A stretch of DNA of 64,000 nt. It comes from Hysterangium stoloniferum. Taxonomy: Eukaryota > Basidiomycota > Agaricomycetes > Hysterangiales > Hysterangiaceae. Below the pieces are notes generated by a model, which did not search any database, had not been told where the DNA came from, and saw only the letters and a list, made by a program, of their open reading frames with translations. A program made the translations under genes and the position numbers. Positions 22,488 through 57,482 of the stretch are shown piece by piece (positions within the stretch are counted from its first letter, which is position 1; every line of letters starts with the position of its first letter). The stretch is from the NCBI GenBank assembly GCA_015178975.1, contig WHVD01000138.1:124001-188000 (forward strand), in the 5' to 3' direction.

Positions 22488-23702
22488 TACTGCCCCCCAG
22501 GTGGCTAGTCGACAATTAGTGTTCTCATATGACCTGGCCTATTGCAAGGCTGTGTGATCCATGATGAGGAAGGAGTATGTGTTCACCTTCTATGAATGGT
22601 TGAAAATGAACAATCCCTCCTTAGCTGCTAACACCTCACATTCCATGGCTGAGTAATTACATTCAGCTTTTTTGAGTGTGTGGCTCCAGTAGGCAATGAC
22701 ATGTTCAACAGTGATGTTAGTGTCATTGAAGTTTGAGGCCCAAGAGTCTGTCCAGGTGACTTCCAGTTCTTTAGTTTTGTAGAGAGTAACAAAGATGGGT
22801 ACTTCTCACAATTATTCAAAGGCAGATATCTTGCTTGAGCATAAATTTTAGTGTCCCTTAGATCCCATAGTGTCATCTTCTGGACCTGCTGGAGGCAACA
22901 TCCTAGGGCAAAATTGGAAGTGTCCATATACAGGTGATAGGGCATTCCACTAATAGGCTGTCCTAAAACAGGGGTGGAGCTCAATGCAACTTTGATGTCT
23001 TCAAAGGCTCTGAGTTGTGTTTAGAATCCTAGGTCCAGTGAGTCTCCTTTTTTAAGAGATTGAATAATGGGGAGACTGTCCAAGAGTAGAACAGTATATA
23101 AGCTGAAAAATATAAGACCATTCTGAGGAAGTGCTGTAGCTCTCCTATCTTAGTGGGTTGAGCTAGTTCCAATACCACAGTGACATTTTCTTGTTGGGTT
23201 GAGAATATTAGTCATGATACTTTATGTCCAAGCAACAGAATAGAGTTGTATCTGATGTAACATTTTTTTGGGGAGAGTGTTATGCCAGCTGAAATGATAG
23301 CTTGTAAAACTAGATCCAAATGTTTCCAGATGGTCGTCCCATGTCTTAGAAAAGATCATGATGTTATCTATGTAAAACAGGCAGAAAATCCATAGATACT
23401 GTAGGGTGCAAGTACAACCTACCTCACTCTCTGGAAAATAGAGGGCCCATTCCTTAATCTGAATGGCATTCTCTTAAATTGCCACAGTCCTCTGTGGGAT
23501 CTGAAGGTAGTCTTCAGTTTGTCCTCTTCTAGCATTTCAAGTTGGGTGAAGCCTGCCAGTACATTGAAGGAAGATAAAACATTTGATCTGGATAAGGCCT
23601 GCATTATTTCTGATTGACACAGCAATGGAAACTTGTCAGAGACAGTAAGGCTGTTTAGCTTTTGATAATCAGTTACCACTTGAGGTTTTCCATTGTGGTA
23701 GA
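22488..23702 (-). pseudogene. chromovirus X pol, RT and RNase H
   Basis: From 23702 downward the minus strand reads YHNGKPQVVTDYQKLNSLTV, FPLLCQSEIMQALSRSNVLS, MPFRLRNGPSIFQRV, then FYIDNIMIFS (RT active site with Asn in place of the second Asp), and after that the RNase H part GMPYHLYMDTSNFALGCCL and NYSAMECEVLAAKEGL. Stops and frameshifts are scattered. The left-hand end (22488) is the Tc1/mariner junction and the right-hand end (23702) is the foldback junction. The preceding codons of the same gene are found at 56993, on the far side of foldback copy 2. Confidence 0.8.
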
Positions 23703-24480
23703 CACTGGAGGCATCCCAAGATTTTTGGAGTTGGAAAACCTTCAGAAAATCTTGTTATTTGGCCAAATTTTCTAAGTGTTTTGTGAATTGAAAAACTCTT
23801 TGAAAATTCTGAGTTTTAGTAGGTTTTTCTGAGGCCAAAAATTGGATCTGAAAATTCTAAAAATTTGCATCAGGGAATTATAAGGAAATATTGTTGGAAA
23901 TAGCCTATTCTTTATGGATTTTCTGAATAAGAAAACTCTTAGAAGACCCTGTATTTTGTTAGGATTTTTCCACCTAACAAAATCCTATGAAAACTGTAAT
24001 AATGTACCTAGAGAAATCAATTGAAAACCACATATTTCTACTTAATTTTGCCCCTGAGGGAATTCAGTGAAAACTATGGTTTTCTGCCTGACAAAATCTT
24101 GAGCCAAGACAAAGTTTTTTTAATGTTTTGTCAATGGGAAAACCATGATGAAATTTACAATTTAATTATACATAAAATCATTGAATAATCATATATTTCA
24201 ACAAAATTTTCCTTGGTCATAAACACTATGGAAATTCAAAAAATCTGTTTGTGAAATCATGAAGAAATTGATGATTTTCCATGAGTTTCTTAGAGGTTTT
24301 TTAAGGTGAGAAACCCTGAACCGATGTTTTGCAATTCAGCACGATTTGCAAATATTCGAAAGGATACAGTGCAATTCAGTGCAATTCACAAATATTTGAA
24401 AAGATACAGTGTGATTCATTATAATTGGCAAGTGTTTGGAAATATTCAATGTGATTTGCAAGTTTTCAGGAGGCTAGAGT

Positions 24481-25340
24481 GCAACTCTTTTAGACTTTTT
24501 GCGACTATTCTAGACTCTTTGTGATTATTTGCGACTGTTTGCGACTCTGATAGACTGTTTGCGACTCTTTTGGACTTTTTGTGACTCTTTTGGACTTTTT
24601 GTGACTCTTTTGGACTTTTTGTGACTCTTTTGGACTTTTTGTGACTCTTTTGGACTTTTTGTGACTCTTTTGGACTTTTTGTGACTCTTTTGGACTTTTT
24701 GTGACTCTTTTTGTGACTCTTTTGGACTCTTTGTGACTCTTTTAGACTCTTTGTGACTCTTTTAGACTCTTTGTGACTCTTTTAGACTCTTTGTGACTCT
24801 TTTAGACTCTTTGTGACTCTTTTAGACTCTTTGTGACTCTTTTAGACTCTTTGTGACTCTTTTAGACTCTTTGTGACTCTTTTAGACTGTTTGTGACTCT
24901 TTTAGACTGTTTGTGACTCTTTTAGACTGTTTGTGACTCTTTTAGACTGTTTGTGACTCTTTTAGACTGTTTGTGACTCTTTTAGACTGTTTGTGACTCT
25001 TATAGACTGGTTACGACTGTTATAGACTCTTTGCAACTGTTATAGACTCTTTGTGACTCATGTAGACTCTTTGAGACTTTTTGTGACTCATTTAGATTCT
25101 TTGTGACTCTTTTAGATTCTTTGCGACTCTTTTAGATTCTTTGCGACTCTTTTAGATTCTTTGCGACTCTTTTAGATTCTTTGTGACTCTTTTAGATTCT
25201 TTGCGACTCTTTTAGATTCTTTGCGACTCTTTTAGATTCTTTGCGACTCTTTTAGATTCTTTGCGACTCTTTTAGATTCTTTGCGACTCTTTTAGATTCT
25301 TTGCGACTTTTTTGGACTCTTTGCGACTTACTCTTTGTGA
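24481..25340. repeat. 20-bp tandem array, left arm of copy 1
   Basis: Units of the type GACTCTTTTAGACTCTTTGT, GACTCTTTTGGACTTTTTGT and GACTCTTTTAGATTCTTTGC follow each other in three homogenised blocks. The same repeat in inverse orientation fills 27340-27780 of the right arm. Frames read through it are low-complexity Lys/Ser/Glu or Leu/Cys strings and are not genes. Confidence 0.85.
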
Positions 25341-26139
25341 CTCTTTGAAAAGTTGCAAAGTCGCACAAAGTCGCACAAAGTCGCAAAGTGTCACAAAGTC
25401 ACAAAGTCGCACAAAGTCACAAAGTGTCGCACAAAGTCGCAAAGTATCGCAAAAAGTTGTGTTGCAAAAAGTCGCAAAAGTGTCACAAAAAGTTGTGTTG
25501 CAAAAAGTCGCAAGTGTCACAAATCATAGCACAGTGTCTTCACACAATAATAATCTATGTAAAAAGCCTCCAAAATTTCTATTATCCTCTTTTCTCTATA
25601 ACCACAAACAATGATACACTATACACACAGCACATGGACAAAGGGAGGAAAAAAACACATCACTGTCAATTATATAGATAATCTATGTTAAGAAGAAGCC
25701 ACAGCAAACCTGATATACAGTAGGAGGTACACATTGCATGTGAATTTGAAGCTGGGGGATGATGGCATGGAACAAGAAAATGGGGCTTGGGGCAGGCAGT
25801 ATCCAAGATGGCGGCAGCGGCAGGGGGCAGGCTGGGGTGATGGTGGGTAGGTACAGGTAGTTGAGTATCGATACCAGTATCATCAGGTGCAGGATATAAA
25901 CAAGACATTGGTTATATTAAGTAGAATATACTTTTTACTTGTATAAATCTTGAAAGCTGGCGCAGTGCTGGCTGGGGCGGGGTGACAAGGCGGGGAGAGG
26001 TGCTGTGGGCATGATGGTGTGATATAATATGCTGAGCAAGAAAAAGGGAATCCAACTCCAAGTCTAGCTGGAGAGGATAGCAATAGAAGTGGGGGGGATA
26101 ACCAAAGGGAGCCGGCCAGAGGAGACGATGGCGAAACGT

Positions 26140-27165
26140 GATCACTCATCCATCCTATTCATATCTCCGTTTTCATCGTCCGCATACTGCTCCACAGACT
26201 GCCATGCTGCACATTTGCGGGGACAGCGCAAGCGTGGTCCCCAGGCCCGACGGGTGCTGGTACGACTGGCGCGTCGTCGACGTGTGCGGGTGATGCGAGC
26301 CAGTATACGACGTGTGGTGCGAGTCGCACGCCTCCCCGCGAGAAATGGCCTGGCCCCACCTCCGCGCCCGATCCGCCCCCCGCCGCACCGCTCGAGCTGG
26401 TCGTGGTGGTGCTCGGCGAGCCCCCAGGGCCCTGCGGGAAAAACGGCGCCGTCAGCGTCCCAAGCCCCAGCGTGCCGCCCCCACCCCTCCCGCCGCTGCC
26501 GCCCCTACTCGCGTTCCCCGCACCACTGCCGCCGCTGCCGCTCCCGCTGAGACTGCCGTATCTGCTCCCGCCGTTCCCCGCGGCGCCGCTACCAAGCCCA
26601 GGCGGGAAGCCCCCAAAGTCCGCGCTCGAGCCGGTCTCGTCGGACCAGTTCTGCGCGTGGTACGGGGGTGCGCGCCGCCGTGCGCGATCGGGTGCAGCGG
26701 CGCGGGGTGCAGCGTGTCCTAGGGCCCGTTCCCGTGTCCGTGTCCATCACCGCCGCCGCCGTGCGGCCCGTGCCCGTGCCCATGTCCCTGTCCATGGTCG
26801 TGCGGCCCATACCCGTGTCCTTGCGGCCCGTGGGGCCGGTGGCCGCCGTGTGTGTGCCCCAGCTTGGGGAAGGCGGGGTGCCATGTCGCGGCCGGGGGGA
26901 AGTGGTCGTCGGGGTCCGCGTGGATGGCGGGTCCGTTCAGCGCGGGCACGGCATCGGCGTAGTGGCTGCTGCTGGAGTAGTAGGCCGTGGCGAGCCCGTA
27001 GGGGAGGCGGTAGGGTGTGCCGTCGACGGGGGAGACGCTGCCGAACTCATCGGCGGGGAAGTCGTGCGGCGAGATGGAGGTGTCGTAGGGCGAGGCATCG
27101 GTGCGGCGCTTCTTGCAGCTGTTGTTGGGGCGGGGGCGGTAGATGTATCAGGGTACTTGGAGTTG
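26140..27165 (-). pseudogene. captured 3' end of a host gene (copy 1)
   Basis: A GC-rich block sits in an AT-rich transposon. Minus-strand frames give NNSCKKRRTDASPYDTSISP, then SPVDGTPYRLPYGLATAYYS, a His/Gly-rich tract (GPQGHGYGPHDHGQGHGHGH), and, after a frame break, YHAQNWSDETGSS, a Gly/Ser-rich tract and APHVVYWLASPAHVDD. In copy 2 the corresponding frame ends in ENGDMNRMDE and a stop, so this is the C-terminal coding part of a gene plus what looks like its 3' UTR (down to about 25560). The parent gene is not in the window and its family is not recognised. Frame breaks suggest it is not translated as a host protein. Confidence 0.6.
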
Positions 27166-28531
27166 AAGTTTTCCTTCAACTTTTTTGGCTTGGTCGAGCT
27201 GCTTGCGACACTTTGTGACTTTGTGCGACTTTGTGACTTTGTGACACTTTGCGACTTTGTGCGACTTTGTGCGACTTTGTGCGACTTTGTGCGACTTTGC
27301 AACTTTTCAAAGAGTCACAAAGAGTAAGTCACAAAGAGTCCAAAAAAGTCGCAAAGAATCTAAAAGAGTCGCAAAGAATCTAAAAGAGCCGCAAAGAATC
27401 TAAAAGAGTCGCAAAGAATCTAAAAGAGTCGCAAAGAATCTAAATGAGTCACAAAAAGTCTCAAAGAGTCTACATGAGTCACAAAGAGTCTATAACAGTT
27501 GCAAAGAGTCTATAACAGTCGTAACGAGTCTATAAGAGTCACAAACAGTCTAAAAGAGTCACAAACAGTCTAAAAGAGTCACAAAGAGTCCAAAAGAGTT
27601 GCAAAACGAGTCACAAAAAGTCCAAAAGAGTCACAAAAAGTCCAAAAGAGTCACAAAAAGTCCAAAAGAGTCACAAAAAGTCCAAAAGAGTCGCAAAAAG
27701 TTGAAAAGAGTCGCAAACAGTCTATCAGAGTCACAAACAGTCGCAAATAATCACAAAGAGTCTAGAATAGTCGCAAAAAGTCTAAAAGAGTTGCACTCTA
27801 GCCTCCTGAAAACTTGCAAATCACATTGAATATTCCCAAACACTTGCCAATTATAATGAATCACACTGTATCTTTTCAAATATTTGTGAATCACAGTGAA
27901 TCGCACTGTATCCTTTCGAATATTTGCAAATCGTGCTGAATTGCAAAACATCGGTTCAGGGTTTCTCACCTTAAAAAACCTCTAAGAAACTCATGGAAAA
28001 TCATCAATTTCTTCATGATTTCACAAACAGATTTTTTGAATTTCCATAGTATTTATGACCATGTATAATTAAATTGTAAATTTCATCATGGTTTTCCCAT
28101 TGACAAAACATTAAAAAAACTTTGTCTTGGCTCAAGATTTTTTCAGGCAGAAAACCATAGTTTTCACTGAATTCCCTCAGGGGCAAAATTAAGTAGAAAT
28201 ATGTGGTTTTCAATTGATTTCTCTAGGTACATTATTACAGTTTTCATAGGATTTTGTTAGGTGGAAAAATCCTAACAAAATACAGGGTTTTCTAAGAGTT
28301 TTCTTATTCAGAAAATCCATAAAGAATAGGCTATTTCCAACAATATTTCCTCATAATTCCCTGATGCAAATTTTTAGAATTTTCAGATCCAATTTTTGGC
28401 CTCAGAAAAACCTACTAAAACTCAGAATTTTCAAAGAGTTTTTCAATTCACAAAACACTTAGAAAATTTGGCCAAATAACAAGATTTTCTGAAGGTTTTC
28501 CAACTCCAAAAATCTTGGGATGCCTCCAGTG

Positions 28532-30771
28532 AAATACAGAAAATGACGCTTAAAGACCTTAAGGATACGAAAATTTATGCCCAAGCACGAGCAGCCTTTG
28601 ATCAATCACGAGACGTGCCCATCTTCGTTACTCGTTATAAAACCAAGGAGCCGGAATTCACCTGGACAGATTCCTGGGCCGCAGATTTTGACGACACCAG
28701 TGTCACGGTCGAACGTGTTATCGCCTATTGGAGCCGTACGCTCAAGAAAGCAGAATGTAACTATTCAGCCACAGAGCGAGAAGCGTTAGCCGCTAAAGAA
28801 GGATTAGTCCATTTCCAGCCCTTTATCGAAGGAGAACATATCCTTCTGATCACTGACCGTGCGGCGTTACAATGGGCCAGATCTTACGAGAATACTAATC
28901 GTCAACTGGCCGCATGGGGGGTGGTATATGCTGCATACCCCGGTCTGGAAATCCTACATAGAGCAGGACAAATACATAGCAATGTTGACCCACTGTCCAG
29001 ACTTCCTCGAGTACCGGACTATGCTAGCCCCGTGAGAGACGACCTTTTACCGATTGTAGCGGATTCTTATAACCGGAATAACGATGAGACATTATGGGAG
29101 AACAAACCAGCGGAAAAAGCCGTCTTTCTCACTCATCACGAGTTAGTCGAACCAGTCGGAACCATGGAAGAGGTCCCCCAAACGAAATGGGATTTGCACA
29201 ACCTCCCCAGAAATGATGAAAACGATGAAGCGAATTTTACTCTCTCTAATCCACAATTGCTTATAGAGATCGACAAAAATTATGCTAAGGAACTTCGCGA
29301 CGGATACCAGAAGGACCCTGCCTTCAGAAATTATTACGCCACCGATCCCATTTCTCCAAACATGGTAACTACTCCTTTGCATTATTTCATCGGCAAGAAT
29401 AAGCTATTGTTCTTTCGAGATTCAGACGGGAAAAGTTGGATCTGCATTCCTAGCAGCATGACGATGACCATACTCAAGCTGATACATGATAACCCTTTCA
29501 AAGGAGCTCATGCAGGCGGCCACAGGCTCTTTAATCTGATGAAAGACCGTTTCTTCTGGCCGAGGATGTTGCATGACTGCGTGGCATACGCTCGCAGCTG
29601 CGACATATGCCAGAAAACTAAAATTGATCATTCCGCTCGACAAGGAGCTCTTCGACCCGTGGATGTACCCCTAAGGCCATTTGAGGTTGTCTTGATGGAC
29701 CTGATTACCGGATTGCCTCCTTCTACAGAGGGTGCTTATTCCGCCATCTTCGTCACCGTGGATAAACTCATGCGTTTCTTAATCTGTGAACCCACCACTT
29801 CAGATCTATCTGCAGAAGGATTCACGTGAATCATCGTGAATAAAGTAGCCGCTCCTTTCGGTCTGCCTTCAAGGATAATCTGTGATCGAGACAAGAGGTG
29901 GACCTGTAGGTTCTGGAGGGAAGTCTGCAAAGTATACAGAAGTGCCCTTGCAGTATCCTCGTCCCACCCTCAGACCGATGGTCAAATGGAGAACGCTAAT
30001 GCTATTGTGGAGCAAATGCTCAGAGTGTACTGCGCCTCTTCGAAGGAGGAATGGTCTAAATAGACTCAAGTAGTGGCTCATACCTACAATTTGACGGTTC
30101 AAAGCTCAACAAGCTATGCACCAGCCTTTTTGCTGATGGGCTACTTACCAAGAGGAATGTCTAGCTGTCTGGGAGGGGACGACCCTGTGGTTCCCAGAGA
30201 ATTATCGGATAGCCCTGTAGCCGACCAATGGATCTTAGAATTGGAAAATCACCGACAAGTGGCACGGGATTCGATTGCGTGAGCACAAGAAACCCAAGCT
30301 CGCAGTTACAACAAGAGACGGAGATTGGTGGAAGATATCTCAGAGGGAGATTATGTTCTGATTAATCCCCATTCTCTCAAGCTCATCGAAGCCAAGGGAC
30401 CCGGAAGGAAACTTATACAAAGACGGATAGGGCCGTTTGAGGTCTTGGAAAAGGTCAATCCTCAAGTCTTCCGACTCCGCATTCCCTCGGAATATCAATT
30501 ACATCCAGTGATTAATCGAGACCATCTTAAAAAGTACCACCTCTCCCCTAAGAAATTCGGATCCAGGGAGCTACTCGAGAATCCTCGAGAACTCAATTGT
30601 AATGATGAGGAGTACGAAGTAGAAGCTATAGTAGGGCACAAAAAGCATCGTAATCGACTCCTTTTCCAGGTTCGATGGAAAGGATACGGACCGGAGGAGG
30701 ACACTTGGTTAAACGGCAATGACCTTTGTAATGCTCCCGCTCTCCTTAGAGCTTACAAGACTATTTATTGA
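28532..30771 (+). pseudogene. chromovirus Y pol: RNase H, integrase, chromodomain
   Basis: The frame enters at IQKMTLKDLKDTKIYAQA, the exact continuation of the Y RT at 52587. RNase H is seen in ERVIAYWSRTLKKAE and NYSATEREALAAKEGL. The integrase zinc region is HAGGHRLFNLM with CDICQKTK. The catalytic core is VLMDLITGLPPST, IICDRDKRW and TDGQMENANAIVEQML. A C-terminal chromodomain reads EYEVEAIVGHKKHRN then FQVRWKGYGPEEDTWL. In-frame stops occur at 29827 (TGA where FTRI is expected), 30061 (TAG for Trp) and 30280 (TGA). All are single transitions, so this copy is recently dead and otherwise well preserved. CpG is normal. Confidence 0.9.
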
Positions 30772-30973
30772 ATTTAATGATCATTTCACATCCTCATGAC
30801 GACAACACTGTTTATCTACTTCTAGCTCTACCCCCCCACTTTCTTCCCCCTCGGCTTTTCACTTCAATAACCAAGCGGAGCGTGAAATTAATATAAAATA
30901 CGTAAATTCGCTAAAGAAAATTTTATTCCCCCTATCTCTTCCCTCCACGTCAAACCTCTCTAATCAGTATACT

Positions 30974-33900
30974 ATGTCGCAGGAGCAGCAACCCAAACCC
31001 AAATTCCCCAACTTCAAAAGAATACCGCGACCTCAACCTATTAATACCTCTACCACGCTGTCTCGTACTGAACAAGTCGAGCACTCCACGAGCAACTCTG
31101 GAACGCCTTTGTCAATACCCTCCGCTGCGCAGGGCAACATCGCAGGAACGTCCACCAACTCGGGGAACGGAACCGCCTTTACTCCATACGCTCCTCTTTC
31201 CAGACCCCAATTTCCCAATTTCAAAAGAATACCTCGACCTCAAACTACAGTTCCTTCTGCCCCATCACCTCGAACAGAAACTGTTGAGCGCGTGGAGGAG
31301 ACCTTGTCATCCACGAATCCTATGCGGACGGACTCCATTTCAAAAGCTGCACCATGGTCCTCTAATACTTGGGGGGCTCCCTCGGGAACATGGAGTGAAA
31401 CCCCACCACCTTGTCATAGTATTTTCCCTTCTACTGAAGAGGAGATCAAAAGGAAAAGACGGGGTCACCTTCTACGATTGGGACAAAGTATGAAGGATCA
31501 AATTACAAAGCATTGCATTGCGACATGGAGATGGAGTTGCACTACCTCCCAGACCCCCTTTACGACGTGGACCTCAGGAATGGACCTACTGGATGGGGCC
31601 CGGTGATCTTTCATCTGACTCGGAGGACAACCAATCTCAATACCCCACCTACGACAGCAAGTACCTCAGTGCTGACTGCCATGAAGGTTTCCTACTCCCT
31701 GACAACATTCACTTCTTCACGAGTGATCCTAACCAACAACGAAAGCTACCAACTTCCATCAGAGTTTGGAGAGGGTATCGTCCAGCAGACTTTGCAACCC
31801 CATCCAGTTCCTCTCATCTCCCTCCACCTCCGCCGGTCTCTTCCGTACCCGCATTACAGTGCTTTACACCCTTTTCAGAGTTACCGGGAAGTCTTGTACC
31901 ATCCGCCGAGCTGCCTTCTCTTCCCCCTATACCACTACCCCTCCCCTTTGCAGGACATTCCCTGATATCACTGTCCTCATCCATACCCAAGCCTTCTCCA
32001 GCACCGCAGCCAATCTCACCCCTCCGCAGGTCACCTGACCCTCTCGTCACCTCCCACTCTACTCCGATGCCTTTAGTCCCTGCGGTGTCTAACATTCCCC
32101 TCACTTCCTTGACAACTCGGAGTCCACCGCCCGCCTCTCCCTACTCCCCTTGCATTTCTCTGGGAAGCCCCATTCAGCATCCTAACGATACATTAATGGA
32201 TATTGATCACCCTATCCCAGAAGTTCTCGCAACGCCTATGGAGGAAGTCCTCGAGGTGCCTCTCTCAGCCACAGACATCTCCAAAGAACCCCCCCCGGCA
32301 ATGGAAGTCTTTGAGGAGCCTCCCCCCTTAAGCGAAAAAGCAAAAGGGAAACGAAGAACTGATACTCAGGCCGACGAGCCCCTTGTCATTGACCCCCCCC
32401 CGGCCCACCCCATTCGCAGCCCCCCGCCGCAGCCATCCTCTCCCCTCCACTCTGAGGATATGGCTGGCCCCTCCCGTCCCTTCCAGTCAAGTTGAATGTG
32501 CATGTCCATTAATTACCCCTCCGACATCTTCACCGTGGGATGCACATTAACGCGACTGGGACCAACCCTGCGGCACCCCCTTCTTAAAGGGCATATCCAG
32601 GGATAAAGCAGGTCTCTCACGTTGTCAGACCGCATGAGTGCGTTTTATCTATGCGTGTTAGGATACACACACAGGCCGGGTTTCCGGAGAAACCCGCGGG
32701 ATATCCGGTAGGACTTGGCTTCAGCTTATAGGCTGCACCCTCGCTAGATCGTGTTGTCCAATTTCAAATGGACGGACGGGGATCCTGGGGAGAGTCCGGG
32801 CAGGGTTCGTAGGTCGTAGGTCGTAGGTCGGAGGTCGTGGGTCGTAGGTTGGGGGTCGTGGGTCGTGAGTCGAGTTGGTTGAGAGAGATAGATGCGCCGG
32901 AGCCCGTGGGCTCCGACTAGTGTGAGCGGTCTGATGAGAGTAGGGTTTTAGAGCGGAAAATATATTAGATTACTGGGGGGAATCTAAGCTAATTTTCTGA
33001 CTGGATTGTATGTACAACATCTGCCAGTTTATATAGACTGTGGAATGCATAACATACAAAATCCAGTAATAATGAAACGAAACTAACAAAACATGAAACG
33101 GGAATAGTAAACACCAAATTGGTGTTAGGAACGGAACGGAACGGAGCGGAGTCCGAATTGTGACAAAGCATAACCCATAACGGGAAATGGAGCAGGAGCG
33201 GAGTCCTAAATCATGACAGGTCATTTGACTAAAATGGGAATGGGGCTCGATTAGAGTGGTGACGGGATTCTAAGCGGGGACCGGTGACTGATGTGTGGGA
33301 CGAAGACGGACATAGACAGAGATGGAGTCTGGGGGAAGTCCGGTGACTGATATGTGTCGTAATGAGGTTGAACGTAACGAGTCTTGACATGATGGAGTCC
33401 GGGCGGGAAATCCTATAAACAGACAATTGGTGCTTGTAGCGTGTGGGGGCGTACGGGTTAGTGCCGGAGTCCGGCGGGATTGTCCGGTCATAACAACGCG
33501 TCAACGACCCTAAGGAACAGCTGCGTTTAGTGGAGGATATCAAATGGGTGGAACTCTCCATGTTTCGGTCCTTACTTGTCAACTCTTCTTGTGTTCTTCC
33601 TGACCACACACCAATCCACTCTGCAGTGGACCTCGTTGACTTGCTGGAGCAACTGTTGCCGGATTCGGACACCTCAAGAGGAATCCCCCCTGGGGGAGAC
33701 ATGAGCTCCACACCGCTCATGACTCCTACCCCGCCATCACTACACTCTCGACCCCCTCTCATTGCCCGTATTACCAACGCTTCCACTGATCGTGTTCGCG
33801 CCATAATTTGAACGCGCCAGAAGGCCTACGGTCGTTGGGTCTCGTCGATCCAAAAACTGGATGGGTTGACATCCACCAATGACGCTTCGAAGCGGGAGGA

Positions 33901-37415: not shown

Positions 37416-37418
37416 ATA

Positions 37419-45942: not shown

Positions 45943-46018
45943 TTATGTGCTTAGAAACTAATAGTCGTAAAGTAATGTTTTCTTCGTAGGGAAAGAGCGG
46001 TCTGGCCCGGATCACCAC

Positions 46019-46507: not shown

Positions 46508-46737
46508 AAGAGCTTTTGACCGTGTGCAGGATGTGCCATCCTTTGTTCATCGGTACAAAACCAAACAGCCCGAGATTGAGTGGTCAGATTCATGGGGACC
46601 CACTTTTGAGGCGACCGAAGTTACCATTGAACGAGTCATTGCATATTGGAGTCGCACACTGAAAAGCGCTGAACGTAACTATTCTGCCACTGAACAGGAA
46701 GCGTTAGCAGCAAAGGAGGGACTAGTCCACTTCCAAC
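46500..46737 (+). pseudogene. chromovirus pol fragment (RNase H)
   Basis: An open frame reads RAFDRVQDVPSFVHRYKTKQ, ERVIAYWSRTLKSAERNYSA and EQEALAAKEGLVHFQL, matching RNase H of Y with no stops. It is cut cleanly by the Y 5' LTR at 46738. It belongs to yet another copy of the family. Confidence 0.75.
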
Positions 46738-47363: not shown

Positions 47364-47381
47364 GTGGTGATCCGAGCTGGA
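47364..47381 (+). other. primer-binding site of chromovirus Y
   Basis: GTGGTGATCCGAGC directly abuts the LTR. The TGG start would pair with a tRNA CCA end; the tRNA species is not determined. The same sequence follows the LTRs of Z and W. Confidence 0.5.
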
Positions 47382-47439
47382 CCGCTCTTTCCCTATGAAG
47401 AAAAACATTTATTTCAACTATCAAATTCTAAGCACATAA

Positions 47440-49912
47440 ATGACCACTGGCAAGAACCAAACGCCGAGATCCTCTGTGACCCCGAGTAGTTCAAAGCCTC
47501 GTCAAAGACCTGCAAGTCTGGAACCACCCCGTAATGTCACCATGAGGAAGTTTTTGTTGACTTTTCAAAAACCAGCTCCTCCTGGAAGTCCCGTCGAAGC
47601 AGTAGCTGGACCGTCAACGGATGCCCCTCCAAGTCCACGAGAAGAACATCCGTCAACTGAGCAGTTGAACGTCCCTGGAGCTAAGGTTGAAATTACCTGT
47701 GCTTCTGAACCCGTTCTCTTGTTCCCACCTAAACAGGTCATCCTTAACCAATTCTTTAGGGGTCATATGATTTACGCCCAGCCCATCGACTTACAATGGG
47801 ATGCGTACTACGCCGATCGAATTTCTGCGGATCAGGTTACTCCCTTTGTGGAGGAGTACAATACGGACTACCCCCTCTTACCGGTGACTGTAGCAGTCTG
47901 GTTAGGTCGTTATCAGGCTATTTTATCAGCGCAAGATCTATTCACACGACCTGGAACCCTTGAGGATCTAACTTGCTCGATCCCCGAATGGTCGAGCGAA
48001 GTTACTTCTGTTATGGAAGGAGGGAGGATGGTTCTTAAACAAGAAGTGTTCTCTTCATTCCTCAAAGCGTTCCGCACGCACGATGACGCGTTACAAATCC
48101 TTCACGACCTACTCGGTGGGGATCACATCGTCCCCAAAGTCGACTACCAGTATATATACATTCAGATGCTGGAGGAGTCTCTTAACGGGATTACTCGGAA
48201 TTCTTCGTTTGCATATTTCACTTTAAGGGGTCGGTTAAGGCGAAATCAGAGAAGACTCGATAAGATGGTTTTGGAGGTGCTTTACCCTTATGGTGATTCC
48301 ATCCAGGTACCCGATTCGCCCATCTCCACAACAAGTTCGTTTGTTCGTACCCTGAATGGATCTCCCGACACTCGTTTCCTTCATTCGCTCAATCGTCCCA
48401 TTATTTTGCAAGACTTCCCGTCTGACATGAGGATGCAGGTTGCGGAATGTCTTCAGGAAAAAGGAATGGAAATATGCATCCCCCTCTATCAGCCTCAACC
48501 TCGTCGACCTTTGAATACGGTCAAAATCAAGAGAGGGATTGCGATGGAACCTAGCCCTACCCCCCATCAGGAAATTCACCGCTCTCGCGTCACGTTCGAA
48601 AGAATCCCTGGCAATACAAACATGCGTGATGAACCAACTACGACTAGATATTGATCAGTCGCCAACAGGGTCAACCGTCTTTCTCCACTGCATTCACCAA
48701 AGGTATAGCTGGTCAGGTTGCTGGTCGAGGATCGCCGAATCCAGTCGATCCTCGCCATTCCCTGCCGATCTCCTCCAACCCTTTTCTGCCATCAGGAGGA
48801 CCTCCTAGTAATTCATCTGGGAGTTCTAGTACCTCAAGCGATGGAGGGAATTCGGGACGTGGGGGCGTCACGGTAGAGTACCTAGCTCTCCCTTTTGAAC
48901 TCCGATGCAACCTCGAGCCAGCGGGCCTATCGATGACTTACCTAAGGATAAAAGGATCGCTCTTAACACCAACGACATCAAGATCAAATGGTCAGACCTT
49001 CCCGAATACGATGGGACTCAATCCAAGGCGTTGGATTACATCATGGATATTATGAGCCTCTCGGAGATCTCTGACTCCATGAGTACATTGTTGGGAGTCA
49101 CTCTGCCAAGATGACTCACCGGTGGTGCTAAGATCTGGTGGAGCACCCTAGACCGTGAACATCGCACTGAGTTTAGTCGATCTCACGGATCGTTTCTTTG
49201 GGGCATCGTAGAAGGATTACTTGGAACTCGTTGGTGTGAATCCTTGGCTCTAGAATGGGAAGCCATGAAATTTCGACAGGCTGGTCACAATCATGAGACA
49301 CCCATTCATTACATTCAGCGAAGGGTCAAGCTCTATTGATTCTTGTATGGGTTCCACCAAAACCGGAAGGACGAAATGCACAGACTTATCCTGACACTGC
49401 CCACGGAATGGCTTTATCTTCTACAGGGACAACCTATCGACGACATCATGAGCCTACAGACTTACGCGAACAATTTACAAGAGGCGTTGATCAATGCTTG
49501 GGTTCAAACACATCAAGAGCGTTATCGGTTCCAAAAGCCTAGAGTCATGATCGCCGAGCAAGACAAGTCGGATCCCTGGCATGAGGAAGAGCACTCTGGA
49601 AGAATCGACCCCACTAACCGAGGTCACGTCCTCCTTGGCGAACTCGAGGATAAAACCGTCCCTAGGAGATCGAACGCTAAGCAGGGTAAGAAACACGGCA
49701 AGTTCTTTTTTGAACAGAGTGACAAGAAAAGCATCGCCAAACCTCCGAAGGAGTGTTGGATTTGTGGGAGTTTAGAGCATTTCAAGATCGACTGCCCCCA
49801 TGCGGGCAGGATGTCGCACTATGTCTCTATTAACAAGTGCTCCGCGCAGAACCCAATGGAAGAGGCGGAGGATCAAAGGGCTTATGAAATGGTTTATGGA
49901 TTAAGTGTATAG
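47440..49912 (+). pseudogene. chromovirus Y gag with CCHC knuckle
   Basis: The first 404 codons (47440-48654) are open: MTTGKNQTPRSSVTPSSS, QVILNQFFRGHMIYAQPIDL, THDDALQILHDLLGGDHIVP, FAYFTLRGRLRRNQRRLDKM. A frameshift follows near 48650, another near 48890, a TGA at 49112 after LGVTLPR and a TGA near 49338. The Ty3-type Gag core is in IKWSDLPEYDGTQSKALDYI, WGIVEGLLGTRWCESLALEW and HYIQRRVKLY. The nucleocapsid knuckle is CWICGSLEHFKIDC (C-x2-C-x4-H-x4-C). The long N-terminal region ahead of the core is unusual for Ty3 Gag and is shared with Z. Confidence 0.82.
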
Positions 49913-49993
49913 GGACAAGTACATAACATTGATGAGGAATCGATTTTCATTTCTGTCTACCTTCCTCAGTCAGAGGACAGCATCGTTTCAGAT

Positions 49994-52587
49994 GTGAAAG
50001 CATCCTCGAATGAGAACGAGACATCGCAAGTGTATGTTTCTATATCAGACCATGATTTTCTCGAGAAAGGAGACTGGCTAGACGCTCATCGTCAGAACCG
50101 TGAAGGTCTGACTGAGACGAGAGTTTTATCGCGACCTGAACCTCCCACCATTGAGGAAATCGTCGATGAGGACGCATTTGCAAACCGATCTAAGGAAATA
50201 AGTCAGACCTACATTATAGAAGACCCCTCTGAGTCAGAGGGATCGGAGGAGGAGAGCTTCCCCTTTGACCCAGGGCAATTACCTGACTTAATTCCTTGCG
50301 ATGAGTCAGACTCTGAAGCAGACGACTCTATTTCGAACGCCACTCCCAAGGTACCTAACGGTAGATGTATCAGGAGGAACGTCAAACTGGCTGCAAGAAA
50401 AGAAAGCAAAAGACCTAGAGTTCAATACCCCCGATCCAGTCGACTTATGAAAGAGGATTCGACTATTATTTATCGCAGAAGGGACCCTCCGGGTGGATAT
50501 TCCAGTATTGGGATTTCAGCATTACACATCTACAGATGCATAGGAAATTCAGAAGCCTCAAATCCTATTAAAATCAGGCTGGATGCTGGGGCTGACCTCT
50601 CCTTAATCTCGGAGGATTTCTATAAGGAACTAGAGGACCGCCCTAAACTCAAGCAAGGACTCAAGCTGCATCTCATACAACTTACCGGTAATGCCAAAGT
50701 ATTAGGATACGTCAATGTCGGACGACACCGGTATACTCCTTAAATTTACCGCTGAAATGTATGTTGTCCGAGGTATGACCTTCCCGATCCTTCTTGGAGA
50801 AGACTTTCACGTGAACTATGAGATCGGGACATTGCGAGACCAACCGCTGGGTTCCAGATTGATTTTGCCTGGGAGAGCGGGATCTATCCCAGCCAGTTCT
50901 TCCAAGGAGCCGCAGCCTTTAACCTTTTCGATTAGCAAGATCCCCTTTGAGGAATTAGCCAATGACTCGCCTGAATTGACTTCCAAACCAGACAAAGGAG
51001 TGCATACTGAAAGAGTCGCACGGGCCTTACAAGATTGTACTATAGAACTGCAATCGGCTCGATTAGTACCAATCTTTGTAGGAGATCTTATTGGTGGCCA
51101 ATGGATAGTCGAGGGAGTTGTCTTGCAGAATGATGATGGGAGTATACTAGCTGCTCCCACCACCGCCATCTCTAGGGAACATGCCGCAATACCTCTCGCT
51201 AATCCCTCTCTGATGCCAAGAATCATCAGACGAGGGGAAACCGTTGGATTAATTCATGACGCGAACAAATGGGCCCAGACTCCTAGATCTTTGACTGAGA
51301 AAGCATCGATGCAGTCAATGGCAACCAAGATCACCCATCCCGTTGAGAGTCTATCAAAAATAGAAGAGGAGCGTGTCCTGAATCCTCAATCCTCTGGACT
51401 GCCCCCAGAACGGGAACTCGCAGACGATTTCGACCCGGCAGGTCCTAAAACGTCAGAGGTTGCCACCACGGAAACGTTTCATGCGGAAGATCTGCATAAG
51501 CTGGTTAACTTAGGACCTGACATCCCTACCGAGGTCTCCTCCCACTTGGAGTCGGTATTAACTAAGAATGTCCTAGCCTTCGGAGTAGACGGGCGACTGG
51601 GACAAGTGGATGTCAAGGTCAATGTCCCATTGAAAAAGGGTGCACAACCTATTTCAATGTCAATGTTCCCAACCTCCCCAGCTAATAGGAAAGTCATTGA
51701 TGAACAAATGGATACTTGGTTCCAACAGGGAGTAATTGAACTGTCCAAGAGTCCTTGGGGGGCGCCAGCCTTTGTTGTCTATCGCAACGGGAAACCACGA
51801 GTAGTGATCGACTATAGAAAGTTGAACAGTCTAACAGTTCCCGACGGATTCCCGCTGCCACACCAGTCGGAAATCATGCAAGCGCTTTCGGGCTCCAACA
51901 TCTTATCTTCCTTTGATGCACTAGCCGGTTTTACCCAACTTGAAATGTTAGAGGAAGACAAGCCGAAGACCACCTTCAGATCCCATCAAGGACTGTGGCA
52001 ATTCAGGAGAATGCCCTTTGGACTTCGTAATGGACCTTCTATATTCCAAAGGGTTATGCAAACCATACTTGCACCTTACTTATGGATATTCTGTCTGGTT
52101 TATATTGACAACATCGTGATATTTTCTAAGACATGGGACGATCATCTAGAACATTTAGATCAGGTTTTACAAGCCATAATTGCCGCAGGAATCACTCTCT
52201 CACCCAAAAAGTGCTATGTAGGGTATAATTCGATTCTACTACTAGGACATAAGGTGTCTAGACTCGGCTTTTTGACCCATCAAGAAAAGGTCGCCGCTAT
52301 ATTAGAATTGGCTACAGCTTCTAAGATAGCGGATCTTCAACGTTTTCTAGGAATGGTTCTGTATTTCTCTGCGTATATACCATTTTACTCCTGGACGGTC
52401 GCTCCACTTTTCAACCTCTTGAAGAAAGGAGTTCGTTGGAATTGGGATTCTGAACACACCCGAGCTTTTGAGGACATCAAGGTTGCGTTGAGCTCAGCTC
52501 CAGTACTCGGACACCCCGCAAACGGTATGCCTTATCGGTTATACACAGACGCTTCGGACTTTGTGCTAGGATGTTGTCTCCAACAAA
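49994..52587 (+). pseudogene. chromovirus Y pol: protease and reverse transcriptase
   Basis: An acidic linker is followed by the aspartic protease motif IRLDAGADLSLISEDF (D-A-G where D-S/T-G is usual) and then, after a frame change at about 50720, GMTFPILLGEDFHVNYE. RT runs from LKKGAQPISMSMFPTSPANR through WGAPAFVVYRNGKPRVVIDY, MPFGLRNGPSIFQRVMQ, VYIDNIVIFSKTWDDH (Y-I-D-N instead of Y-I-D-D) to RLYTDASDFVLGCCLQQ, where the foldback element begins at 52588. The missing RNase H onward is at 28532. Few stops are present, so decay is mild. Confidence 0.88.
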
Positions 52588-54471
52588 CACTGGAGGCATC
52601 CCAAGATTTTTGGAGTTGGAAAACCTTCAGAAAATCTTGTTATTTGGCCAAATTTTCTAAGTGTTTTGTGAATTGAAAAAATCTTTGAAAATTCTGAGTT
52701 TTAGTAGGTTTTTCTGAGGCCAAAAATTGGATCTGAAAATTCTAAAAATTTGCATCAGGAAATTATGAGGAAATATTGTTGGAAATAGCCTATTCTTTAT
52801 GGATTTTCTGAATAAGAAAACTTTTAGAAAACCCTGTATTTTCTTAGGATTTTTCCACCTAACAAAATCCTATGAAAACTGTAATAATGTGCCTAGGAAA
52901 ATCAATTGAAAACCACATATTTCTACTTAATTCTGCCCCTGAGGAAAATTCAGTGAAAACTACGGTTTTCTGCCTGAAAAAATCTTGAGCCAAGACAAAG
53001 TTTTTTTAATGTTTTGTCAAGGGGAAAACCATGATGAAATTTGCAATTTAATTATACATAAATCATTGAATAATTATATATTTCAACAAAATTTTCCTTA
53101 GTCACAAACACTATGGAAATTCAAAAAATCTGTTTGTGAAATCATGAAGAAATTGATGATTTTCCATGAGTTTCTTAGAGGTTTTTCAAGGTGAGAAACC
53201 CTGAACCGATGTTTTGCAATTCAGCACGATTCGCAAATATTCGAAAGGATACAGTGCGATTCAGTGTGATTCACAAATGTTTGAAAAGATACAGTGTGAT
53301 TCATTACAATTGGCAAGTGTTCGGGAATATTCAATGCGATTTGCAAGTTTTCAGGAGGCTAGAATGTGACTCTTTTAGACTTTTTGCAACTATTCTAGAC
53401 TTTTTGCAACTATTCTAGACTCTTTGTGATTGTTTGCGACTGTTTGCAACTCTGATAGACTGTTTGCGACTCTTTTGGACTTTTTACGACTCTTTTGGAC
53501 TTTTTGCGACTCTTTTGGACTCTTTGCGACTCTTTTAGACTCTTTGTGACTCTTATAGACTTGTTATGACTGTTATAGACTCTTTGCAACTGTTATAGAC
53601 TCTTTGTGACTCATGTAGACTCTTTGTGACTTTTTGTGACTCGTTTAGATTCTTTGCGACTCTTTTAGATTCTTTGTGACTCTTTTAGATTCTTTGCGAC
53701 TTTTTTAGACTCTTTGCAACTTACTCTTTGTGACTCTTTGAAAAGTTGCAAAGTTGCACAAAGTTGCAAAGTGTTCACATGAAGTCACAAAGTCACACAA
53801 AGTCACAAAGTATCGCAAAAAGTCGCGTTGCAAAAAGTCACAAAAGTGTCACAAATCATAGCAGTGTCTTCACACAATAATAATCTATGTAAAAAGCCTC
53901 CAAAATTTCTATTATCCTCTTTTCTCTATGACCACAAACAATGATACACTATACACACAGCACATGGAGAAAGGGAGGAAAAAAACGCATCACTGTCAAT
54001 TATATAGATAATGTATGTTAAAAAGAAGCCGCAGCAAACCTGATATACAGTAGGAGGTACACATCGTATGTGAATTTGAAGCTGGGGGATGATGGCATGG
54101 AACAAGAAAATGGGGCTTGGGGCAGGCAGTATCCAAGATGGCGGCAGCGGCAGGGGGCAGGCTGGGGTGATGGTGGGTAGGTACAGGTAGTTGAGTATCG
54201 ATACCAGTATCATCAGGCGCAGGATATAAACGAGACATTGGTTATATTAAGTAGAATATACTTTTTACTTGTATAAATCTTGAAAGCTGGTGCAGTGCTG
54301 GCTGGGGCGGGGTGACAAGGCGGGGAGAGGTGCTGTGGGCATGATGGTGTGATATAATATGCTGAGCAAGAAAAAGGGAATCAAACTCCAAGTCTAGCTG
54401 GAGAGGATAGCAATAAAAGTGGGGGGGATAACCAAAGGGAACCGGCCAGAGGAGACAATGGCGAAACGTGA

Positions 54472-54996
54472 TCACTCATCCATCCTATTCATATCTCCGT
54501 TTTCATCATCTGCATACTGCTCCACAGACTGCCATGCTGCACATTTGCGGGGGACAGCGCAAGCGTGGTCCCCAGGCCCAACGGGTGCTGGTACGACTGG
54601 CGCGTCGTCGACGTGTGCGGGTGATGCGAGCCAGTATACAACGTGTGGTGCGAGTCGCATGCCTCCCCGCGAGAAATGGCCCGGCCCCACCTCCGCGCCC
54701 GATCCGCCACCCGCCGCACCGCTCGAGCTGGTCGTGGTGGTGCTCGGCGAGCCCCCAGGGCCCTGCGGGAAAAACGGCGCCATCAGCGTCCCAAGCCCCA
54801 GCATGCTGCCCCCACCCCCTCCGCCGCTGCCACCCCTACTCGCGTTCCCCACACCACTGCCGCTCCCGCTGAGGCTGCCGTATCCGCTCCTGCCGTTCCC
54901 CGCGGCGCCACTACCAAGCCCAGGCGGGAAGCCCCCAAAGTCCACGCTCGAGCCGGTCTCGTCGGACCAGTTCTGCGCGTGGTACGGGGGTGCGCC
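54472..54996 (-). pseudogene. captured 3' end of a host gene (copy 2)
   Basis: The open minus-strand frame enters from the inverted arm and reads YHAQNWSDETGSSVDFGGFP, a Gly/Ser-rich tract, APFFPQGPGGSPSTTTTSSS, APHVVYWLASPAHVDD and ENGDMNRMDE with a stop at 54472. One G more than copy 1 in a G run near 54548 gives the longer frame. The His-rich part present in copy 1 is absent here and replaced by an inverted copy of the neighbouring 3' UTR-like sequence. Confidence 0.6.
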
Positions 54997-55440
54997 TGCC
55001 CCAAGCCCCATTTTCTTGTTCCATGCCATCATCCCCCAGCTTCAAATTCACATACGATGTGTACCTCCTACTGTATATCAGGTTTGCTGTGGCTTCTTTT
55101 TAACATACATTATCTATATAATTGACAGTGATGCGTTTTTTTCCTCCCTTTGTCCATGTGCTGTGTGTATAGTGTATCATTGTTTGTGGTCATAGAGAAA
55201 AGAGGATAATATAAATTTTGGAGGCTTTTTACATAGATTATTATTGTGTGAAGACACTGCTATGATTTGTGACACTTTTGTGACTTTTTGCAATGCGACT
55301 TTTTGCGATACTTTGCGACTTTGTGCGACACTTTGTGACTTTGTGTGACTTTGTGACTTCATGTGAACACTTTGCAACTTTGTGCAACTTTGCAACTTTT
55401 CAAAGAGTCACAAAGAGTAAGTCGCAAAGAGTCTAAAAAA

Positions 55441-55960
55441 GTCGCAAAGAATCTAAAAGAGTCGCAAAGAATCTAAAAGAGTCGCAAAGAATCTAAAAGA
55501 GTCGCAAAGAATCTAAAAGAGTCGCAAAGAATCTAAAAGAGTCGCAAAGAATCTAAAAGAGTCGCAAAGAATCTAAAAGAGTCGCAAAGAATCTAAAAGA
55601 GTCGCAAAGAATCTAAAAGAGTCGCAAAGAATCTAAAAGAGTCGCAAAGAATCTAAAAGAGTCGCAAAGAATCTAAAAGAGTCGCAAAGAATCTAAAAGA
55701 GTCGCAAAGAATCTAAAAGAGTCGCAAAGAATCTAAAAGAGTCGCAAAGAATCTAAAAGAGTCGCAAAGAATCTAAAAGAGTCGCAAAGAATCTAAAAGA
55801 GTCGCAAAGAATCTAAAAGAGTCGCAAAGAATCTAAAAGAGTCGCAAAGAATCTAAAAGAGTCGCAAAGAATCTAAAAGAGTCGCAAAGAATCTAAAAGA
55901 GTCGCAAAGAATCTAAAAGAGTCGCAAAGAATCTAAAAGAGTCGCAAAGAATCTAAACGA
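55441..55960. repeat. 26 x 20-bp array, right arm of copy 2
   Basis: The unit GTCGCAAAGAATCTAAAAGA is repeated 26 times; only the last unit differs, by one base. The left arm of the same element has only about three such units (53640-53720), so the array has expanded on one side. Confidence 0.95.
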
Positions 55961-56992
55961 GTCTACATGAGTCACAAAGAGTCTATAACAGTTGCAAAGA
56001 GTCTATAACAGTCATAACAAGTCTATAAGAGTCACAAAGAGTCTAAAAGAGTCACAAAGAGTCCAAAAGAGTCGCAAAAAGTCCAAAAGAGTCGCAAAAA
56101 GTCCAAAAGAGTCGCAAACAGTCTATCAGAGTTGCAAACAGTCGCAAACAATCACAAAGAGTCTAGAATAGTCGCAAAAAGTCTAGAATAGTTGCAAAAA
56201 GTCTAAAAGAGTCACATTCTAGCCTCCTGAAAACTTGCAAATCGCATTGAATATTCCCGAACACTTGCCAATTGTAATGAATCACACTGTATCTTTTCAA
56301 ACATTTGTGAATCACACTGAATCGCACTGTATCCTTTCGAATATTTGCGAATCGTGCTGAATTGCAAAACATCGGTTCAGGGTTTCTCACCTTGAAAAAC
56401 CTCTAAGAAACTCATGGAAAATCATCAATTTCTTCATGATTTCACAAACAGATTTTTTGAATTTCCATAGTGTTTGTGACTAAGGAAAATTTTGTTGAAA
56501 TATATAATTATTCAATGATTTATGTATAATTAAATTGTAAATTTCATCATGGTTTTCCCATTGACAAAACATTAAAAAAACTTTGTCTTGGCTCAAGATT
56601 TTTTCAGGCAGAAAACCATAGTTTTCACTGAATTCCCTCAGGGGCAAAATTAAGTAGAAATATGTGGTTTTCAATTGATTTCCCTAGGCACATTATTACA
56701 GTTTTCATAGGATTTTGTTAGGTGGAAAAATCCTAACAAAATACAGGGTTTTCTAAAAGTTTTCTTATTCAGAAAATCCATAAAGAATAGGCTATTTCCA
56801 ACAATATTTCCTCATAATTTCCTGATGCAAATTTTTAGAATTTTCAGATCCAATTTTTGGCCTCAGAAAAACCTACTAAAACTCAGAATTTTCAAAGAGT
56901 TTTTCAATTCACAAAACACTTAGAAAATTTGGCCAAATAGCAAGATTTTCTGAAGGTTTTCCAACTCCAAAAATCTTGGGATGCCTCCAGTG

Positions 56993-57482
56993 AGATGACA
57001 AATGCCGGGGTTCCCCAAGGGCTCTTGGATGGTTTGATAACTTCTTGCTGAAACCAGGTGTCCATTTATTTATCAATAACTTTCCTGTTAGCAGGAGAGG
57101 TCTGAAACATTGGCATTGAGATTGGTTGCACACCACTCTGCAATCAGATACTAACTTTAACATCCACCTCTCCTAGTCATCCATCCACTCCAAAAGCTTG
57201 AACATTCTTAGTTAGTATTGCACCACAATGAGGCAAAATGTCAGTGGGGATATCAGGTCATAAGTTAACTAGTTTCTGAAGATCCTCTGAGTGAAGCTTC
57301 TCTGTAGTGGTGACTTCAGAGGTTTTAGGGCCTGCTGGGTCGAAATCATCTACTGTTCTCTGCTCAAGGGATGACTCAAATGACTGGGGTTTAAGGATAC
57401 ATTCCTCCTTGATCCTTGAGAGACTCTCAATGAGATAAGCAATTCTCATCCCCATTGATTGCATAATCTCCCTTCAGTGTTA
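56993..57482 (-). pseudogene. chromovirus X pol, N-terminal RT part
   Basis: From 57465 down the minus strand reads MQSMGMRIAYLIESLSRIKE, DDFDPAGPKTSEVTTTEKLH, then QPISMPMFQTSPANRKVIDK and SPWGTPAFVI, directly followed by the foldback end. The next codons of this gene (YHNGKPQ) are at 23702. The element is 5'-truncated at about 57482, only about 120 bp from the end of the DUF2235 gene; no gag or 5' LTR of X is present. Confidence 0.8.

What the first reader, a model, noticed from the sequence alone, without database searches (positions are those of the whole stretch)
23700..56995. Two foldback elements with swapped target-site halves: 24 kb that looks like an integrated circle
Left of copy 1 is AGA and X pol (starting YHNGKP); right of copy 1 is AAA and Y pol (starting IQKMTL). 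Left of copy 2 is Y pol (ending CCLQQ) with AAA; right of copy 2 is X pol (ending TPAFVI, minus sense) with AGA. Joining 23702 with 56993 using one AGA, and 52587 with 28532 using one AAA, gives uninterrupted RT/RNase H frames. Both have exactly the length seen in the other copy. So the copies inserted once into X and once into Y, and later exchanged. The order X3'-T-Y3' ... Y5'-T-X5' cannot come from a simple inversion or a swap between two linear loci. It is what results when a circle carrying Y-T, the NLR gene and flanking DNA recombines with T inside X. This would be TE-mediated movement of an immune-type gene by extrachromosomal circular DNA.
Basis: partly seen in the sequence, partly recalled or inferred. 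Interest (0 to 1): 0.93.

Follow-up and report, generated by a model that had tools for sequence, protein, structure and literature searches.

The report
Immune gene inside a recombined transposon
In a truffle-like fungus, 24 kb of DNA carrying an immune-type gene sits inside an old jumping gene in an order that is most simply explained by a DNA ring (or tandem copy) joining the chromosome at a shared transposon, although a linear route or an assembly error is not excluded.

Summary
T1 (23703-28531) and T2 (52588-56992) carry swapped 3-bp flanks (AGA|AAA and AAA|AGA). The Ty3-type element X is cut at their outer ends, the Ty3-type element Y at their inner ends. Joined with one AAA, Y aligns to 7 of 7 fetched Y copies in a single match. 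Each Y-T junction occurs once in the 111 Mb genome at up to 3 mismatches, so a hotspot is unlikely. The organism is Hysterangium stoloniferum. The 24 kb carries an esterase/NB-ARC/TPR NLR gene.

The order requires that Y3'-NLR-Y5' already existed as a closed block (circle or tandem unit), or that a second event made it. Y's two LTRs look like different insertions with unmatched flanks, but controls are few and the predicted excision scar was not found.

Their arms pair within each element at 15 of 16 two-against-two columns and never crosswise, so exchange fits only the outer ~172 bp. T1 and T2 are probably not sisters, which argues against duplication models.

Verdict: a clear fossil of transposon-mediated exchange; a circle is likely but unproven. 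New member of a known kind.

The parts
13009..13532 (-). LTR-like 3' end of element X
   Evidence: 67-79% identity to Y-family LTR pieces; 13349-13742 matches Y 33944-34312, which spans the start of the Y 3' LTR
16211..23702 (-). 3' part of Ty3-type element X (pol), with nested insertions; AGA at 23700-23702
   Evidence: Matches Y pol pieces at 69-74%; RT_RNaseH_2 in 22631-23020
23703..28531 (+). T1: 4829-bp long-TIR DNA element (CACTG ends, 20-bp subterminal arrays)
   Evidence: Termini and arrays; family with 168 + 173 ends in the genome at up to 3 mismatches
28532..34043 (+). 3' part of Ty3-type element Y (RNase H, integrase zinc-binding, chromodomain), begins with AAA
   Evidence: PF17917, PF17921, PF24626, PF00385; joins the Y 5' part at the site
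34044..34672 (+). Y 3' LTR; followed by caagc
   Evidence: 94.8% to the 5' LTR; preceded by tggggggcac as other Y 3' LTRs are
34673..36863 (-). gag part of a related retroelement abutting the Y 3' LTR
   Evidence: 75% to Y 47319-49503
37578..38172 (+). solo Y-family LTR
   Evidence: 88% to 34044-34674
38700..40117 (+). high-copy repeat next to the NLR gene; its left edge was not mapped
   Evidence: more than 20 places at 90-99% in the genome; homology of 5 NLR paralogues stops at 40117-40132
40230..45380 (+). NLR-type gene with introns (P0001, 1607 aa: DUF676 esterase, NB-ARC, TPR array)
   Evidence: P0001 maps here, residues 1-76 at 40230-40457 and 343-1607 at 41529-45380; Pfam; BU17DRAFT_98255
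45767..46735 (.). fragments of related retroelements (gag/LTR on minus, RNase H piece on plus) next to the Y 5' LTR
46738..47363 (+). Y 5' LTR; preceded by ccaac, followed by the gtggtgatcc stretch seen after other Y 5' LTRs
   Evidence: nearest of the LTRs compared is C88 (97.4%), its presumed partner is 95.5%
47364..52587 (+). 5' part of Y (gag region, zinc knuckle, RT, start of RNase H), ends with AAA
   Evidence: PF00098, PF00078, PF17919 positions 1-48 of 100
52588..56992 (+). T2: 4405-bp palindromic copy of the same DNA element family
   Evidence: right half is an inverted copy of the left half, arms 97%
56993..57464 (-). 5' side of X pol, begins with AGA
   Evidence: 71% to Y 51309-51775, contiguous with 23704 in X

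Best explanation
Two members of one long-TIR DNA transposon family had inserted, one in X (TSD AGA) and one in a copy of Y (TSD AAA) (shown by the split sites). The Y copy lay in a closed 24-kb block, either an excised circle or one unit of a tandem repeat, made by recombination between two direct Y copies flanking an NLR gene (inferred: LTRs that do not look like a pair, unmatched flanks). Homologous exchange between the two T elements, near a T end, put that block into X. It left two T elements in direct order with exchanged flanks and Y turned inside out (order shown, pathway inferred). A circle is judged somewhat more likely than a tandem unit.
For: Exchanged flanks and both empty sites. 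Family rule of 3-bp TSDs in 13 of 15. Y-T junctions found once each at up to 3 mismatches. Crossovers at T alone cannot make the order from two linear loci (logic). Y LTRs: 33 differences, 21 of them with both states seen in at least two other LTRs, 0 states private to the pair; the tree puts Y5 with C88 (0.865) and Y3 with solo, C511 and C24 (0.943). Y flanks are ccaac and caagc. T1 and T2 cores are nearer to C323, C246 and one half of C22 than to each other, so two independent insertions are expected. The outer tips hold exact blocks for exchange (93 + 78 bp left, 119 bp right). No near-identical donor NLR among the places scored (nearest 91%, 40 of 882 candidates scored), which fits movement rather than copying.
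Against: T1 and T2 do not look chimeric: 15 of 16 two-against-two columns pair the arms within elements, 0 pair crosswise, and the 16th is a gap column at the cut end; 9 and 0 in the family alignment; crosswise pairing is rejected (p 0.015 and 0.008). A crossover must sit in the outer ~172 bp (about 4-8% of T by length) or have been hidden later. Longer exact blocks exist inside T (161 and 150 bp). Scar search: LTR-CCAAC 0 of 30 near matches, CAAGC-LTR 0 of 4 (1 mismatch allowed). The LTR test is weak: only 3 control pairs; differences at segregating sites are 7 of 18, 10 of 19 and 15 of 28 in them against 21 of 33 here; C511b, with a matching TSD, also has 0 private states and is as close to C99 as to its partner; C24 has an unmatched TSD too. 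T1 and T2 arms as one clade is not quite rejected (p 0.051).
Confidence: 0.53

Rival explanations
1. Macrotransposition: T1 and T2 acted as the two ends of one 33.3-kb unit that inserted into X by transposase, giving AGA at both outer ends. The inner AAA flanks date from an earlier T pair inserted in Y within a closed or tandem Y block.
For: The outer ends T1-left and T2-right are flanked by AGA/AGA. T1 and T2 look intact and non-chimeric. Other units of 12, 23.8 and 32 kb bounded by outward T ends have matching 3-bp flanks (C442, C547, C172).
Against: It still needs a closed Y block and two T elements at the same Y base. C172 and C547 hold retroelement frames inside and may be single T elements enlarged by nested insertions; the inside of C442 is unassigned. 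No transposase domain in the 9 internal frames of C9, C442, C547 and C172 that I scanned, out of more frames listed.
Confidence: 0.17
2. Linear route: two successive rearrangements, or break repair copying from T through Y3' and the NLR and switching templates between Y copies, without any free circle.
For: The 24 kb is full of repeats that could host a second break or a switch. No excision scar was seen. Y's LTRs also fit a template switch between Y copies.
Against: It needs one more event. A simple linear Y would be expected to keep paired LTRs and a matching TSD, which is not seen, though the LTR test is weak.
Confidence: 0.16
3. Assembly artefact: X-T-X is intact on the chromosome and a separate circle or tandem copy Y-T-Y was threaded into it through the shared T.
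For: T1 and T2 are 4.4-4.8 kb and 96-98% alike in arms and core. Genomes of this set were assembled with ALLPATHS-LG (some patched with PBJelly), Falcon or Celera (PMC7550596, passages); which one for this species I did not see. No reads were available.
Against: A switch between reads would normally fall inside T and make T1 and T2 chimeric, which they do not look. No N in the window and 20-bp arrays of about 40 copies suggest long reads (inference). One misjoin still requires a real circle or tandem unit.
Confidence: 0.12
4. Cointegrate or hybrid-element insertion: one T in Y was duplicated while the block inserted into X at AGA, so T1 and T2 are copies of one element.
For: It explains outer AGA/AGA and inner AAA/AAA in one step. 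T1 and T2 lie in direct order. T1 and T2 arms as one clade is not quite rejected (p 0.051).
Against: T1 and T2 differ in structure (4829 against 4405 bp, T2 palindromic) and in core sequence (96.1%), and each core is nearer to other copies. PMC2775673 (passages) states that such copies should be identical.
Confidence: 0.02

Closest known systems
Galileo at the breakpoints of Drosophila buzzatii inversion 2z3 (PMC2775673; part of the abstract and passages seen)
   Same: Long-TIR, foldback-like DNA transposon; two copies with exchanged target site duplications mark an ectopic exchange.
   Different: There the copies are in opposite orientation, chimeric, and bound an inversion. Here they are in direct order, do not look chimeric, and bound a block in circular order.
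Wine-yeast region B integrated through an extrachromosomal circle (PMC3053389; part of the abstract and passages seen)
   Same: A gene-bearing block (17 kb) in circularly permuted order in the chromosome.
   Different: Insertion there is put down to nonhomologous recombination at several sites, with ARS activity shown. Here the junctions are a shared transposon, and one insertion was seen.
Human segmental duplications with A-B/C-D to B-A/D-C order (PMC7450558; abstract and outline read)
   Same: Reversed block order taken as the mark of a circular intermediate.
   Different: [quoted passage not shown] Transposon homology here, and no close donor NLR among the places scored.
Cattle colour sidedness, serial translocation by circular intermediates (terms seen in the listing; details recalled, paper not read)
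   Same: Block order explained by a circle (recalled).
   Different: Not marked by a transposon target-site swap (recalled).
Ty/LTR circles in yeast (PMC4751563; part of the abstract and passages seen)
   Same: Recombination between retroelement repeats can make circles in a fungus.
   Different: The passages seen concern circles of the Ty element and its LTRs, not a host-gene cargo.

Membership tests
Ectopic recombination between two transposon copies | Target-site duplications exchanged between the two copies | tested here: met
   AGA|AAA and AAA|AGA; 13 of 15 other T elements or units match with themselves
Ectopic recombination between two transposon copies | Both empty sites can be read by joining the exchanged flanks | tested here: met
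   Y join aligns to 7 of 7 Y copies (5 without any gap, one with a 3-base gap at the site); X join aligns to 7 of 7 at 73-75% with no gap within 10 bases of the junction
Ectopic recombination between two transposon copies | Both copies chimeric (published test, PMC2775673) | tested here: not met
   arms pair within elements; only the outer ~172 bp is uninformative. So I say that it works like such an exchange, not that membership is shown
Circle (eccDNA) integration | Circularly permuted block order | tested here: met
   X3'-T1-Y3'-NLR-Y5'-T2-X5'
Circle (eccDNA) integration | Donor locus or excision scar found | tested here: not met
   LTR-CCAAC 0 of 30 and CAAGC-LTR 0 of 4 near matches; no other Y-T junction; more diverged scars would be missed
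Circle (eccDNA) integration | Free circle observed | not testable with these tools
   needs reads or circular DNA enrichment
EnSpm/CACTA (CMCT) DNA transposons | 5'-CAC..GTG-3' ends and 3-bp TSD | tested here: met
   feature as given in PMC12730594 (passages)
EnSpm/CACTA (CMCT) DNA transposons | Related transposase in an autonomous member | tested here: inconclusive
   no transposase domain in 9 internal frames of larger T units; most family members were not read
Ty3/Gypsy elements (X, Y) | RT, RNase H, integrase order with LTRs | tested here: met
   Y: RT, RNase H, integrase zinc-binding, chromodomain (the stretch 29827-30282 was not scanned) and LTRs; X only in part
Fungal NLR | N-terminal effector-like domain, NB-ARC/NACHT, superstructure repeats | tested here: met
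   P0001: DUF676, NB-ARC, TPR array; definition recalled

The most novel reading that the evidence does not exclude
T-bounded closed blocks are a recurrent vehicle in this genome: long-TIR elements move or swap tens of kilobases, including NLR genes, through circles or as macrotransposons, and T1-NLR-T2 is a base-resolved case caught after one move.
Probability: 0.12. Interest if true: 0.8.

Novelty: new member of a known kind. Interest (0 to 1): 0.55.

Why it matters
In the precedents that I saw, circle re-integration is inferred from block order, with junctions that carry no marker. Here both the donor site (in Y) and the target site (in X) can be read to the base, because two nested transposon insertions tag them. 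The cargo is an NLR gene, a class that varies greatly among fungi (PMC12258605, start of abstract in the listing). If confirmed with reads and sister strains, it gives a concrete route by which transposons relocate immune-type genes in a basidiomycete, and it makes clear predictions (circle junction Y5'-T-Y3', an X-T-X allele without the 24 kb).

Tried and rejected
Hotspot idea (T hits the same Y base independently in two Y copies): disfavoured, each Y-T junction occurs once with up to 3 mismatches allowed; a more diverged one could be missed. Recent tandem duplication of one Y-T followed by movement: disfavoured, T1 and T2 cores are nearer to other copies, though p is only 0.051 in the arms. 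Allelic contig without the insert: the left flank 1-8000 has no second copy over its length among the 40 of 1547 candidates scored. Donor NLR copy: nearest 91% among 40 of 882 candidates scored; homology of the 5 paralogues compared ends at 40117-40132. Crossover point inside Y from similarity along Y to 7 copies: no clear switch. X 5' LTR up to 69000: not found. A first scar search with an 11-base pattern was too unspecific (63 + 37 hits) and is not used. LTR set: of 14 regions asked one did not exist and two (C544_5, C31_5) held no LTR and were dropped; the solo LTR was cut two bases out of register, which does not touch the Y5-Y3 counts. Print: the search (circle, NLR, fungi, transposable element; 12 of 457 papers listed) showed none whose title or abstract start reports a circle carrying a fungal NLR; this is no proof that none exists.
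Full report
What is there. The window lies in contig C44 (positions 124001-188000) of a 111.1 Mb, 554-contig genome. Protein names and the contig length of 220017 identify it as Hysterangium stoloniferum, an ectomycorrhizal basidiomycete (PMC7550596, passages; that it fruits underground is recalled). Two copies of a DNA element, T1 (4829 bp) and T2 (4405 bp), start CACTGGAGGC and end GCCTCCAGTG, with 20-bp subterminal arrays. The family has 168 + 173 ends in the genome at up to 3 mismatches.

Target sites. Of the T elements or T-bounded units whose two outward ends I fetched, 13 of 15 have identical 3-bp flanks (C246 gave no right end and is not counted; the choice was limited to the 100 ends listed of 341; the middles of C172 and C547 were not fetched). 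T1 and T2 do not match with themselves but match crosswise. AGA and AAA differ by one base, so I do not rest on the triplets. The stronger evidence is that X pol is cut at the outer ends and Y pol at the inner ends, each contiguous against the other element. The Y join with one AAA aligns to 7 of 7 fetched Y copies in one match each (5 without gaps; L021 has a 3-base gap at the site; L022's 45 gap letters lie away from it), and the X join does so at 73-75% with no gap within 10 bases of the junction. The joined X frame has stops further out.

Circular order. Left to right on the plus strand: X3'(minus)-T1-Y3'-12 kb with the NLR-Y5'-T2-X5'(minus). Crossovers at T change only what lies next to T, so they cannot create the run Y3'-NLR-Y5' from a linear Y. 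That run existed as a circle or tandem unit, or a second event made it. Each Y-T junction is found once in the genome at up to 3 mismatches, so a hotspot is unlikely and no other Y-T-Y copy was seen.

How the closed block may have formed. Y has a 5' LTR (46738-47363) and a 3' LTR (34044-34672). They differ at 33 columns; at 21 of these both states occur in at least two of the other LTRs, and no state is private to the pair. Control pairs: C511 (18 differences, 7 segregating, 12 private states, TSD gtctg/gtctg), C511b (19, 10, 0, ctcgg/ctcgg), C24 (28, 15, 2, atgac/atcag, unmatched); 101 non-pairs have a median of 51 and 22. Y's flanks are ccaac and caagc. FastTree groups Y5 with C88 (0.865) and Y3 with solo, C511 and C24 (0.943). 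This favours two different Y insertions, as left when two direct Y copies recombine and close the segment between them. It is not strong: three controls, and C511b, with a matching TSD, is itself no closer to its partner (97.0%) than to C99. The predicted reciprocal scar (CAAGC before an LTR, CCAAC after one) gave no match: 0 of 30 and 0 of 4 near matches.

Where the exchange happened. In Galileo (PMC2775673, passages) exchanged TSDs come with chimeric copies, and the rival hybrid insertion predicts identical copies. Here the copies are neither. In a four-arm alignment 15 of 16 two-against-two columns pair T1L with T1R and T2L with T2R, and 0 pair crosswise; the 16th is a gap column at the cut end. 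The first lies 173 bases from the tip. In the 700-bp family alignment the counts are 9 and 0. Holding T1L with T2R, or T1R with T2L, is rejected (p 0.0146 and 0.0083; 26 rows, 9 diverged or short rows dropped). T1 and T2 as one clade is borderline (p 0.0509), but their 1.1-kb cores are nearer to C323, C246 and one half of C22 (96.5-97.4%) than to each other (96.1%). So two distinct insertions, with exchange in the outer ~172 bp, is the simplest homologous reading; 93- and 78-bp exact blocks lie there on the left and 119 bp on the right, while 161- and 150-bp blocks lie inside. Mixed elements (C22, C9, C323) show that arms of different type can persist. An exchange between two such mixed elements, or later arm conversion, could also leave T1 and T2 looking pure.

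Transposase alternatives. T1-left and T2-right with AGA/AGA look like the ends of one 33.3-kb unit. Units of 12, 23.8 and 32 kb bounded by T ends with matching 3-bp flanks exist (C442, C547, C172). C172 and C547 hold retroelement frames and may be single T elements enlarged by nested insertions; the inside of C442 is unassigned. Macrotransposition remains possible but still needs a closed Y block.

Cargo. The NLR protein (P0001, 1607 aa) maps to 40230-45380 with introns and has DUF676 esterase, NB-ARC and TPR repeats. The nearest paralogue among the places scored is 91% over 2.8 kb and 89% over 4.3 kb. Homology of the five paralogues compared ends at 40117-40132, next to a high-copy repeat. 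No close donor copy was seen, consistent with movement, loss of the donor, or age.

Assembly. Genomes of this set were assembled with ALLPATHS-LG (some patched with PBJelly), Falcon or Celera (PMC7550596, passages); I did not see which one applied here. The window has no N. A threading error through T would still require a real circle or tandem unit and would be expected to make T1 and T2 chimeric.

Conclusion. Its circle-or-tandem reading leads at about even odds, but a crossover inside T is not supported, and routes without a free circle remain. It is a new case of a known kind, with unusually readable junctions and an interesting cargo.

Noticed in passing
L043/L044 (C172), L045/L046 (C547), L041/L042 (C442): Units of 32, 23.8 and 12 kb bounded by T ends with matching 3-bp flanks (TCA, CAA, TAT); retroelement frames inside C172 and C547; C442 arms are identical over 700 bp.
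   Followed up: partly
L028 (C22), L039/L040 (C9), L031 (C323): T elements whose left and right arms group with different lineages. C22 and C323 have matching flanks, C9 (14.7 kb) has taa/caa.
   Followed up: partly
window 43000-45436: TPR array of the NLR: 19.3 copies of a 126-bp unit at 91% matches, inside a frame open to 45380.
   Followed up: no
window 18799-22489: A further stretch inside X with about 40-bp inverted ends and two long open frames; no Pfam match for the first, the second not scanned.
   Followed up: no
window 40117: Homology of the 5 NLR paralogues compared stops at 40117-40132, where a high-copy repeat (over 20 places) lies.
   Followed up: partly
L051/L052 (C24 Y copy): Another Y element with unmatched flanks (atgac/atcag), possibly also a recombined copy.
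   Followed up: no
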